Positions 36,453 to 37,990 of a stretch of 64,000 nt of DNA are shown here, one piece after another. The position numbers were made by a program, and so were the translations under genes. The stretch is from the NCBI RefSeq assembly GCF_029581275.1, contig NZ_CP120742.1, positions 966,501 through 1,030,500 on the forward strand, given 5' to 3'. Below the pieces are notes generated by a model. The model was not told where the DNA came from. It saw nothing but the letters and a program-made list of their open reading frames with translations, and made no database searches. This stretch comes from Micromonospora sp. WMMD1155. Its GTDB lineage: Bacteria; Actinomycetota; Actinomycetes; Mycobacteriales; Micromonosporaceae. Numbering within the stretch: position 1 is the stretch's first letter; each line of letters opens with the position of its first letter.

Positions 36453-36608
36453 TGTCATCCTCCCGGGGTCGCGGGCCGTTCACCCGGCACAACGGACAAC
36501 ACGCCGAGGCCGACACGCCGCCCACCGGCCCGAACATCGGCAATCCGCCGCACAGCCCACCGGATCGAGAGCAGTCTGTGGGTACATGTCCTGATATGGG
36601 AGGTTCTC

Positions 36609-36869
36609 GTGGCAACCTGCGAGGTCTGCGGCAACGACTACTGGATGGCGTTCGAGGTGCGCACGGTCAGCGGCGACGTGCACACCTTCGACTCGTTCGA
36701 GTGCGCGATCCACCGGCTGGCACCGATCTGCGAGCACTGCCAAATCAAGATCGTCGGGCACGGCGTCGAGGTCAACGGCCGCTTCTTCTGCTGCGGCCAC
36801 TGCGCCCGCGCAGTCGAGGGCGAGGTCGGCGCCGAGATCCGCGACGCCGTCGGCGCCCGCCCGGCCTGA
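36609..36869 (+). CDS. Small Cys-rich metal-binding protein (metallothionein-like annotation)
   Basis: An 86-residue protein with Cys pairs in ATCEVCGNDYWMAFEV, then FDSFECAIHRLAPICEHCQI and GRFFCCGHCARAVEG. The pattern suggests two zinc sites, treble-clef-like. Similar actinobacterial proteins are often labelled prokaryotic metallothionein, but that name is weakly supported. GTG 36609 is preceded by GGGAGG at 5 bases. Function unknown. Confidence 0.75.
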   Translation: MATCEVCGNDYWMAFEVRTVSGDVHTFDSFECAIHRLAPICEHCQIKIVGHGVEVNGRFFCCGHCARAVEGEVGAEIRDAVGARPA

Positions 36870-36896
36870 GCACGATCCTGCGGTACGGTCGTCCCC

Positions 36897-36938
36897 ATGC
36901 GGCCACTGCTGGGCGTCCTTCCCCCGCCGCGCTCCTGA
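36897..36938 (+). CDS. 13-residue leader peptide MRPLLGVLPPPRS upstream of the exporter
   Basis: A tiny ORF (ATG 36897, stop TGA 36936-36938) that sits 8 bases after a TACGGT -10 box (36884-36889), so it may be leaderless. Codons 9-11 encode Pro-Pro-Pro, a sequence that slows ribosomes. Its last codons overlap the first arm of a hairpin that belongs to a four-segment structure controlling the ribosome-binding site of the EamA gene. Translation is not proven; the case rests on position and structure. Confidence 0.5.
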   Translation: MRPLLGVLPPPRS

Positions 36939-37044
36939 ACGGAGCGCCGCGCCCCTCGCCGACCGGGTGACCGACCCGCTCGGCCATCTCGCCGTACGCG
37001 CTCCGTCGACGTCGTCCCCGTCAACGGCTCACCCTTCGGAGCGC
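36929..37044 (+). promoter_or_regulatory. Putative translational attenuator of the EamA exporter gene
   Basis: Four alternating complementary segments: 1 = GCGCTCC (36929-36935), 2 = CGGAGCGC (36940-36947), 3 = GCGCTCCG (36998-37005), 4 = CGGAGCGC (37037-37044). Segment 1 is within the leader ORF; segment 4 contains the GGAG Shine-Dalgarno 7 bases before the exporter GTG. With 1:2 and 3:4 paired the ribosome-binding site is hidden; a ribosome stalled on segment 1 would free segment 2 to pair with 3 and expose segment 4. All pairs are exact. Confidence 0.6.
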
Positions 37045-37048
37045 ATCC

Positions 37049-37990
37049 GTGTCCCTCTCCCGTACCGCGCGCCCGGCCGCCCCGGCGCCGGCCGTCCACC
37101 AGGCCCGCACCGGCCTGATCCAGATCACCGTCACCGGCGTGCTGTGGGGCACGACCGGCGTGGCGGTGCAACTCCTGCACGACAGCACCGGGCTCAGCCC
37201 GGTGAGCATCGGCTTCCACCGCCTCGCGATCGCCGCGCTCGTCCTGCTGGTGTGCGCCGCCGGTCACCTCCGCGCCATCCTGGCCGCCCTGCGCGCGACC
37301 CCCGTACCGCTACTGCTCACCGGTGTCGGCCTCGGCGTCTACCAGGCGCTCTACTTCGCCGCCGTGGCGTGGGCCGGGGTCAGCGTGGCCACCGTCGTCA
37401 GCCTGGGGCTGGCGCCGGTGCTCGCCGTGGCCTGGGAGTCGGCCCGCGCCCGACAGGTCCCCGGCCCGCTGCGGCTCGGCACGCTGGTCGCGGCCGTCAC
37501 CGGCCTCGTTCTGATCACCACCGCGACGGCGGATCCCGGCGCGGCGACGCCCGCCCCCCTGCTCGGCGTGCTCGCGGCGGCCGGCTCCGGCCTCGGGTAC
37601 GCGGTGACCACCCTGATCAGCCGTCAGGTGTCACAGCACACCGCGCCGATGACACTGACCACCATCTCCACCGTGATCGGCGCGCTCACCCTGGCGCCGT
37701 TCGCCCTGGTCTCCGGGATCGGCGTGCCGGTACGCCCCGACACCGTGGCACTGCTGCTGCACCTCGGCGTGATCACCACGGCGGTGGCGTACGCATTGTT
37801 CTACGCCGGGCTGCGCACCACCCCGGGGAGCGTGGCCGCCGTACTGACCCTGCTCGAACCGCTCACCGCCGCGGCGCTGGCGGTGGCGCTGCTGCACGAG
37901 CCGCTGCCGCTTCCGGTGATCGTCGGCGGGGTGCTGCTGCTCAGCGCGGTGGCCGTCAGCTACCTGGCACCTCGGCCGGGCACCCGGTGA
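37049..37990 (+). CDS. EamA/DMT-family transporter
   Basis: A 313-residue drug/metabolite transporter of the EamA family: about ten membrane helices in two repeats, beginning ITVTGVLWGTTGVAVQLL and with the second repeat at GVLAAAGSGLGYAVTTLI, ending LLEPLTAAALAVALLHEPL, the typical EamA motif. It likely exports a small molecule. GTG 37049 lies 7 bases after a GGAG embedded in the predicted attenuator hairpin, which suggests expression is controlled by translation of the upstream leader. Confidence 0.9.
   Translation: MSLSRTARPAAPAPAVHQARTGLIQITVTGVLWGTTGVAVQLLHDSTGLSPVSIGFHRLAIAALVLLVCAAGHLRAILAALRATPVPLLLTGVGLGVYQALYFAAVAWAGVSVATVVSLGLAPVLAVAWESARARQVPGPLRLGTLVAAVTGLVLITTATADPGAATPAPLLGVLAAAGSGLGYAVTTLISRQVSQHTAPMTLTTISTVIGALTLAPFALVSGIGVPVRPDTVALLLHLGVITTAVAYALFYAGLRTTPGSVAAVLTLLEPLTAAALAVALLHEPLPLPVIVGGVLLLSAVAVSYLAPRPGTR

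What the first reader, a model, noticed from the sequence alone, without database searches (positions are those of the whole stretch)
36884..37049. Four-segment translational attenuator with a Pro-Pro-Pro leader peptide upstream of an EamA exporter
Seen directly: a TACGGT box, a 13-codon ORF ending in LPPPRS, and four complementary segments (36929-36935, 36940-36947, 36998-37005, 37037-37044) that alternate exactly. Segment 4 holds the exporter's GGAG and segment 1 lies inside the leader ORF. Known from erm and cat leaders: a stalled ribosome on segment 1 frees the ribosome-binding site. Here the Pro-Pro-Pro run gives a natural pause point. The signal could be a translation inhibitor, loss of EF-P activity or a metabolite exported by the EamA protein. 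I know of no described attenuator for an EamA gene of this kind.
Basis: partly seen in the sequence, partly recalled or inferred. Interest (0 to 1): 0.75.

Follow-up and report, generated by a model that had tools for sequence, protein, structure and literature searches.

The report
Pro-Pro leader switch for exporter genes
A tiny peptide with two prolines near its end is encoded just ahead of one family of exporter genes in many actinobacteria, and the RNA is predicted to fold so that a ribosome pausing there would switch the exporter on; we found no description of it, and what would trigger the pause is unknown.

Summary
In detail: -10 box, 13-codon ORF (MRPLLGVLPPPRS) and four exactly alternating complementary segments lie where stated. 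Relatives make it a family. With a clean EamA profile, 105 of 170 EamA loci carry a leaderless short uORF with Pro-Pro (genus 45 of 48, best family hits 26 of 28, order 22 of 30, class 9 of 44, weak family hits 3 of 20; three loci repeat); only five other leaderless short ORFs turned up. A DNA pattern demanding no proline hit 97 stretches in a collection of 84,980 species genomes: EamA follows in 51, all 51 read PPRS-stop, 50 have the leaderless start. Constant are two adjacent prolines, usually two codons before the stop; not a third proline, not Arg-Ser. With a ribosome mask the sequestered RBS is predicted to open about 100- to 250-fold (median; absolute openness stays low) when the P site is at or just before Pro-Pro, and in the median to close again at the stop; in leaders of other layouts it opens from further upstream too. 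Best reading: a translational attenuator worked by a Pro-Pro pause. Signal unknown. Eight searches of an open-access library listed no description.

The parts
36884..36889 (+). -10 box TACGGT; predicted transcription start at or next to the leader ATG, so the leader ORF is probably leaderless
   Evidence: of 36 rows tried, 34 (own genome included) have TACGGT 6-7 nt before the leader ATG; the rule failed for L006 (leader deleted) and L040 (TAGGTT). In one search a TANNNT box 5-8 nt upstream was a search condition; only 14 of 490 non-EamA ORFs had any short ORF meeting it. No match to the sigma-70 consensus scan. The leaderless-promoter rule is recalled.
36897..36938 (+). leader ORF, MRPLLGVLPPPRS stop
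   Evidence: M-[RQ]-P, V7 and the last two prolines are kept in the 34 rows; amino-acid changes lie mostly at codons 4-5, single ones at 2, 6, 8 and 9. Codons 3, 7, 8 and 10 vary synonymously in 20 distinct sequences (those rows were picked by a peptide pattern)
36921..36929 (+). Pro codons 9-11; the last two (36924-36929) are the constant Pro-Pro and the predicted pause site
   Evidence: codon usage, distance to the stop; mask scan
36929..36935 (+). segment 1, GCGCTCC, last base of Pro 11 and codons Arg-Ser; complement of the RBS segment
36940..36947 (+). segment 2, CGGAGCGC
36958..36984 (+). central hairpin between segments 2 and 3
   Evidence: predicted fold only
36998..37005 (+). segment 3, GCGCTCCG
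37037..37044 (+). segment 4, CGGAGCGC, holding the RBS GGAG (37038-37041)
37049..37990 (+). EamA/DMT-family exporter gene, GTG start, 313 aa
   Evidence: PF00892 E 5.6e-31; TIGR00950, below its cut-off

Best explanation
It is a translational attenuator run by a short leader peptide that pauses the ribosome at Pro-Pro. The mRNA starts at the leader ATG (inferred). Without a pause the ribosome runs on to the stop codon, covers segments 1 and 2, and the exporter's RBS is locked in the 3:4 helix (or, with no ribosome, also in 1:4 with 2:3 nested inside). When the ribosome is held with the P site at or just before the Pro-Pro pair, it covers segment 1 only; segment 2 pairs with 3, segment 4 is released and EamA is translated. 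Shown here: conservation of leader, Pro-Pro position and pairing logic, and the predicted shift in RBS openness. Inferred: that the ribosome really pauses there, that the pause is conditional, and that the trigger is a small molecule which slows Pro-Pro bond formation at the peptidyl transferase centre and is a substrate of the exporter (feed-forward induction).
For: Pro-Pro leader in 45 of 48 genus, 26 of 28 best-family, 22 of 30 order, 9 of 44 class and 3 of 20 weak-family EamA loci, against 5 leaderless short ORFs without Pro-Pro in these 170 loci; L241, L257 and L260 repeat genus loci. Pattern scan without Pro codons: 51 of 51 EamA-linked hits end PPRS, 50 of 51 have a leaderless start, 0 of 46 other hits do. 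Control: of 490 ORFs not called EamA, 14 have a leaderless short ORF and 2 end in PPx1-3; both are the EamA leaders of L095 and L121, mis-assigned. Among 84 distinct Pro-Pro peptides, two codons follow the last Pro in 72; all four Pro codons are used. Mask scan of 56 leaders: median unmasked RBS openness 2e-6; median gain 10^2.2, 10^2.3 and 10^2.0 with the P site three, two and one codons before the last Pro, 10^1.1 at it, about 1x one and two codons after it; with 3' footprints of +12, +14 and +18 the peak stays within four codons of the last Pro and the value two codons after it stays near 1x. Window: 9.5e-7 free; 1.7e-4, 2.0e-4 and 2.4e-4 with codon 8, 9 or 10 in the P site; 3e-5 at codon 11; 7e-7 to 8e-7 at codons 12-13. 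Shuffled downstream regions: median gain 10^0.34 against 10^2.78 (24 leaders, Mann-Whitney p 2e-6). Leader-downstream chimeras: 10^0.99 against 10^2.89 (18 leaders, Wilcoxon p 0.0045). Segments 2 and 3 differ together between clades: 65 of 68 CGGAGCG leaders have CGCTCCG, 16 of 19 CGGGGCG leaders have CGCCCCG. Leader presence clusters on the EamA tree: 8 changes against 31.5 shuffled. ApdA/ApdP arrest with Pro in the P site and Pro in the A site, the same register (PMC10951233, passages).
Against: No expression, TSS or ribosome-profiling data. Predicted openness stays low in absolute terms with the ribosome masked in (2.4e-4 in the window; 0.000 as printed even with 2:3 enforced, because a small local hairpin forms at the RBS), so the model shows a shift, not a clean on-state. 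The opening is not sharply confined to Pro-Pro outside the PPRS layout: in the 20 leaders without a PPRS end the median gain is already 10^1.4 to 10^2.5 with the P site five to eight codons before the last Pro, against 10^2.9 at two before it; it falls only after Pro-Pro, and 7 of 20 still gain over 10x there. In the 27 not chosen by pattern, 9 of 27 gain over 10x one or two codons after it; six leaders with a third codon have a median gain of 10^1.5 at that codon. Individual leaders are rarely decisive: on average 23% of a leader's own shuffles reach its gain; 4 of 18 leaders gain less than their chimera median, two of them losing openness. L006, L041, L042, L158 and 35 of 44 class-level EamA loci lack the leader by this rule. 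Segment 3 was chosen as the best complement of segment 2, and near-copies of one species are counted.
Confidence: 0.75

Rival explanations
1. Amino-acid type attenuator: the ribosome waits at the proline codons when prolyl-tRNA is scarce, or when a prolyl-tRNA synthetase inhibitor or proline analogue is present, and the exporter removes that compound.
For: Short leader peptides with one to six regulatory codons, most of them said to be leaderless, are described in Streptomyces lividans (PMC8079986, passages). A ribosome waiting at Pro 10 or 11 (P site at codon 9 or 10) would open the RBS just as well.
Against: The cases in that paper precede biosynthesis, uptake or tRNA-ligase genes, not exporters, but its authors looked only upstream of amino-acid genes. 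The prolines are adjacent and at a nearly fixed distance from the stop (adjacency was a search condition there, but only 5 leaderless ORFs lacked it against 105 with it). No terminator-like site.
Confidence: 0.17
2. General sensor of slow Pro-Pro synthesis (EF-P shortage or translation stress) without a dedicated small molecule.
For: Consecutive prolines are the classical EF-P-dependent pause (titles in a reference list; the rest recalled). Peptide N-termini differ between clades, so the prolines alone may suffice.
Against: In the one layout scanned across genomes, the leaderless ORF precedes EamA in 50 cases and no other gene (0 of 46 other hits); other layouts were not scanned for other genes. 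Residues before Pro-Pro are not free: V/I at -4 in 57 of 84 and L/T/I at -3 in 66 of 84, though clades with many members weigh in this.
Confidence: 0.17
3. No regulated pause: leader translation or the structure only sets a constant level, or the leader serves re-initiation.
For: No inducer is known. L006 lost the whole leader and keeps the gene behind the -10 box. In leaders without PPRS a ribosome almost anywhere before Pro-Pro is predicted to open the RBS, so plain leader translation could matter there.
Against: In the median a ribosome that has reached the last codons leaves the RBS as closed as no ribosome; the leader stop lies 110 nt from the GTG. Conservation of the Pro-Pro position would be unexplained.
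Confidence: 0.12
4. Chance inverted repeats in GC-rich DNA.
For: Four-way 7-mers occur in 5 of 6386 tiled stretches of the window.
Against: Conservation in five named actinobacterial orders and in unlike sequence solutions.
Confidence: 0.01

Closest known systems
erm/cat-type translational attenuators (ErmCL, ErmBL)
   Same: Short leader ORF, sequestered RBS, stalled ribosome frees the RBS by alternative pairing (recalled, and passages of PMC13410324)
   Different: Probably leaderless leader mRNA, Pro-Pro in place of a drug-specific peptide motif, exporter of the EamA/DMT family, inducer unknown
RAPP arrest peptides (ApdA, ApdP; SecM group)
   Same: Stall before a Pro-Pro bond, Pro in the P site and Pro in the A site (PMC10951233, passages)
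   Different: No R-x-P-P in any of 84 peptides, which have 8-16 residues and so no room for an export signal (recalled as part of those peptides); downstream gene is not a protein-localisation factor
Leader peptides of Streptomyces amino-acid attenuators (leuL, trpL, ilvL, metL, thrL)
   Same: Short, mostly leaderless ORFs of similar length in actinobacteria (PMC8079986, passages)
   Different: Those lie before amino-acid biosynthesis, uptake or tRNA-ligase genes, several with a terminator; here no terminator-like site and an exporter
Metabolite-dependent arrest peptides TnaC and SpeFL, and the orthosomycin-sensing uORF of Mangano et al. 2022
   Same: A small molecule holds the ribosome on a leader peptide (recalled; of Mangano et al. 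only reference-list entries were seen; the paper is not held)
   Different: No ligand known here; whether the orthosomycin uORF is related could not be checked

Membership tests
Translational attenuator (erm/cat type), as a mechanism class | Short leader ORF directly upstream on the same transcript | tested here: met
   the shared transcript is inferred
Translational attenuator (erm/cat type), as a mechanism class | RBS of the downstream gene sequestered by default | tested here: met
   Predicted openness 9.5e-7 in the window, median 2e-6 over 56 leaders; computed, not probed
Translational attenuator (erm/cat type), as a mechanism class | Ribosome stalled at the leader's sensor codons releases the RBS, ribosome at the stop does not | tested here: inconclusive
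   Computed: median shift 100-250x and back, but absolute openness stays low and other layouts open from further upstream too
Translational attenuator (erm/cat type), as a mechanism class | Induction by a ribosome-targeting drug | not testable with these tools
   Needs an expression assay
RAPP arrest peptides | R-x-P-P motif | tested here: not met
   0 of 84 distinct peptides
Amino-acid transcription attenuator | Intrinsic terminator after the leader | tested here: not met
   0 terminator-like sites at 36500-37200 by a T-run rule
Amino-acid transcription attenuator | Codons of one amino acid in the leader, matching the downstream pathway | tested here: inconclusive
   Two to four adjacent Pro codons; downstream gene is an exporter of unknown substrate
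Rfam RNA families | Match at the curated threshold | tested here: not met
   0 matches in the window and in 8 related loci

The most novel reading that the evidence does not exclude
The Pro-Pro leaders are one class of ligand-dependent arrest peptides, spread over several actinobacterial orders, in which the ribosome itself senses an as yet unidentified natural product or metabolite that blocks Pro-Pro bond formation, and the EamA exporter downstream expels that compound. The leaders would then be ready-made reporters for finding the compound and the exporter's substrate.
Probability: 0.35. Interest if true: 0.9.

Novelty: new variant of a known kind. Interest (0 to 1): 0.72.

Why it matters
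It gives a whole orphan exporter subfamily a testable way to find its substrate: whatever makes ribosomes pause at these prolines may be what is exported. It also adds an exporter-linked, probably leaderless group to the Pro-Pro arrest peptides, which in the papers seen here serve mainly protein localisation, and supplies many natural variants for asking what besides Pro-Pro makes a pause conditional.

Tried and rejected
Covariation inside the same-layout clade: 25 rows, segments nearly invariant, so little power. Rfam: nothing. Conserved neighbours as a clue to the substrate: ten flanking proteins from seven loci gave DAHP synthase, DUF5954, YceI, an FAD oxidoreductase, DUF885 or no match; DUF5954 is shared by the two Thermomonosporaceae loci and YceI by the two Geodermatophilaceae loci, otherwise they differ. 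Ten stretches next to class-level EamA genes gave alpha/beta hydrolase (two loci), GNAT, DUF427, a glycosyl hydrolase with lectin domain, GyrI-like or no match (L203 and L216 there have the leader, and three stretches were arbitrary slices). PDB: two distant hits, 5i20 and 7b0k. PADLOC: nothing. Transcription attenuation: no terminator-like site. Class pattern scan of 394 genomes: three hits, the own leader, one inside a coding region (L050) and one EamA leader in another family (L051).

A flaw found and repaired: the first EamA profile included two rows, L045 and L046, that later looked like wrong translations (very long branches); L045-L048, L071, L095 and L121 then appeared leaderless. Counts were redone with a profile built from alignment A1 (its 17 rows all come from leader-bearing loci), and those are reported; the 51 EamA calls among the pattern hits did not change. 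The tree still holds L045, L046 and L095, and eight rows were labelled by hand as having the leader; it was not rebuilt. In one search Pro-Pro was a selection condition; two peptides of 29 and 19 residues were dropped there. In one search, 56 leaders were used: one per distinct peptide, with a recognisable RBS and leader length of 80-240 nt. In one search two near-duplicates were dropped. In one search, 87 of 92 rows could be tallied. Which loci were examined: genus, the best 48 places listed; family, the 28 new loci of the 30 returned plus 20 weaker places picked by hand; class, the 30 loci plus 14 of the 24 further places, picked by hand; order, the 30 loci.

Full report
WHAT IS THERE. The leader ORF runs 36897-36938 and encodes MRPLLGVLPPPRS. 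TACGGT ends 7 nt before its ATG and no RBS-like run precedes it, so it is probably translated from a leaderless mRNA (the promoter rule is recalled; the sigma-70 consensus scan finds no promoter). Segment 1 is mainly the Arg-Ser codons, segment 4 is the RBS of the EamA gene that starts with GTG at 37049 (PF00892). All four pairings are Watson-Crick over 7-8 bp, and the two complete folds, 1:2 with 3:4 and 1:4 with 2:3, are nearly equal in energy (-72.6 and -71.8 kcal/mol). Both close the RBS.

IS IT MORE THAN CHANCE. By itself moderately so: 1 of 5000 shuffles and 5 of 6386 window stretches (some may overlap the site) match it, z = -2.15. The relatives decide it. EamA homologues were fetched by protein similarity, and a leaderless short ORF was sought upstream of each with one rule (TANNNT, 5-8 nt, start codon, 7-30 codons). 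With a clean EamA profile: genus 45 of 48, best family hits 26 of 28, weak family hits 3 of 20, class 5 of 30 and 4 of 14, order 22 of 30 loci have such an ORF with Pro-Pro; five leaderless ORFs without Pro-Pro were found in those 170 loci. L174 has a Pro-Pro ORF without the box. L241, L257 and L260 in the order set repeat genus loci, and L197 repeats L051. The weak family hits and the 14 further class loci were picked by hand. Of 490 ORFs not called EamA in the pattern-scan loci, 14 had a leaderless short ORF; the only two ending in Pro-Pro plus one to three residues were the EamA leaders of L095 and L121.

AN INDEPENDENT SCAN. The pattern CGCTCCTGANNGGRGCG, 80-110 bases, GGAGCG demands no proline codon and no exporter. 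It matched 97 stretches in genome contigs. EamA follows in 51; in all 51 the codons before the stop are Pro-Pro-Arg-Ser, and in 50 a -10 box and start codon make a short leaderless ORF (L113 is cut by a contig end). Of the other 46, one reads PPRS (L143, the end of a longer reading frame) and none has the leaderless start. The 51 belong to Micromonospora (25), Actinoplanes (9), Actinomadura (5), Amycolatopsis (3), unnamed Streptosporangiaceae (3), Thermomonospora (2), Prauserella, Goekera, Modestobacter and Quadrisphaera (one each). Some Micromonospora records are evidently the same species as loci in the other sets.

WHAT IS CONSTANT. Among 84 distinct peptides of up to 17 residues (chosen for Pro-Pro), the last proline is followed by two codons and the stop in 72, by three in 11 and by one in 1. 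A third proline stands before the pair in 52. Arg-Ser, codons that also match the RBS, follows in about half; other clades end PPVA, PPVR, PPATR, PPAR and so on. All four proline codons are used. Residues at -4 and -3 are mostly V/I and L/T/I. No peptide has R-x-P-P. In the window's clade the peptide holds over 34 rows, with changes mostly at codons 4-5, while codons 3, 7, 8 and 10 vary synonymously (rows picked by a peptide pattern). One leader has only 8 codons (MRLAPPAR) and in 19 the last proline is codon 9, which makes a sensor deep in the exit tunnel less likely and points to the peptidyl transferase centre (inference).

HOW IT MOST LIKELY WORKS. A ribosome was modelled as a stretch that cannot pair, and the chance that the RBS is unpaired was computed for each codon in the P site. 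In the window it rises from 9.5e-7 to 1.7e-4, 2.0e-4 and 2.4e-4 with codons 8, 9 and 10 in the P site, is 3e-5 at codon 11 and back at 7e-7 to 8e-7 at codons 12 and 13. Over 56 leaders the median gain is 10^2.2, 10^2.3 and 10^2.0 at three, two and one codons before the last proline, 10^1.1 at the last proline, and near nil one or two codons after it or five and more before it; 30-38% of leaders still gain over 3x just after it, and six leaders with a third codon have a median of 10^1.5 there. With 3' footprints of +12, +14 and +18 the peak stays within four codons of the last proline. The 27 leaders not chosen by DNA pattern peak in the same place (10^2.7 at two before) and fall to 10^0.1-10^0.2 after it, but their gain is broader upstream; in the 20 without a PPRS end it is already 10^1.4 to 10^2.5 five to eight codons before the last proline. 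For these the model says that a ribosome before or at Pro-Pro opens the RBS and one beyond it closes it, not that Pro-Pro is the only opening position. Shuffling the downstream region removes most of the gain (10^0.34 against 10^2.78 in 24 leaders, though on average 23% of a leader's own shuffles reach its value), and swapping downstream regions between species reduces it (10^0.99 against 10^2.89 in 18 leaders; 4 of 18 go the other way), so leader and downstream region appear to have evolved together. Segments 2 and 3 differ together between clades: 65 of 68 CGGAGCG leaders have CGCTCCG and 16 of 19 CGGGGCG leaders have CGCCCCG, the rest being G-U variants and one mismatch; segment 3 was picked as the best complement and rows are redundant, which flatters this.

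The reading is that a pause before or at Pro-Pro opens the RBS and that a ribosome which runs on to the stop closes it. Even so the computed openness stays low (2.4e-4; printed 0.000 with 2:3 enforced), so the on-state is not shown. That Pro-Pro arrest leaves Pro in the P site and Pro in the A site is known for ApdA and ApdP (PMC10951233, passages seen). That the pause happens, is conditional, and has the exporter's substrate as its trigger is inferred.

DISTRIBUTION AND HISTORY. On an EamA tree of 109 rows, 71 with the leader, the label needs 8 changes against 31.5 when shuffled (three rows are probably faulty translations). Relatives without the leader may use other control: several carry a TTGTC-GACAA-like palindrome at the start (seen by eye), untested. 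In L006 the whole leader is gone and the gene sits directly behind the -10 box. Neighbouring genes are shared within families at most.

IN PRINT. Eight searches combining EamA or DMT, leader peptide, attenuation, uORF, polyproline or Pro-Pro, leaderless, ribosome stalling and related terms listed no paper that, by title and start of abstract, describes it; (EamA, leader peptide, attenuation together) found none at all, the others listed 12 to 15 of 14 to 524 papers, so unlisted ones were not seen, and most subscription papers are not in that library. The Streptomyces lividans study (PMC8079986, passages) reports eight leader peptides, none of those seen being this one, and its main text does not contain EamA or DMT. 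Rfam has no match.

VERDICT. A real, widespread and, as far as these searches reach, undescribed family of Pro-Pro leaders before one exporter subfamily, best read as a translational attenuator; mechanism supported by comparison and computation, trigger unknown. On recheck the confidence in the mechanism was lowered from 0.8 to 0.75 and interest from 0.73 to 0.72 because of the broader opening seen.

Noticed in passing
L006 (G056:C20), about position 1482 of its reverse strand: The whole leader region is missing and the EamA GTG follows the TACGGT box after 9 nt: a natural deletion that would make the exporter leaderless, or an assembly error.
   Followed up: partly
L198, L199, L201, L202, L204, L207, L209, L210, L212, L215, just before the EamA start: EamA relatives without the leader carry, by eye, a palindrome such as TTGTC-x-GACAA or ATTGTGTAACAAT near the start (imperfect in L210), suggesting repressor control in place of attenuation.
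   Followed up: no
L044, L157, L161, L162, L167, L175: A sub-group (leaders such as MLFLIVSPPPPSR and MPRFVLSPPVAR) in which the predicted fold pairs the RBS with early codons of the leader ORF in one long stem, a different layout for the same logic.
   Followed up: partly
L181, L183, L186, L203, L205, L206, L216: Leaders of distant EamA relatives share a Trp (Trp-His in all but L186) five or six residues before the first proline of the run (for example MNYHWHKVLPPLSA), perhaps a ligand-specific part of the nascent peptide.
   Followed up: no
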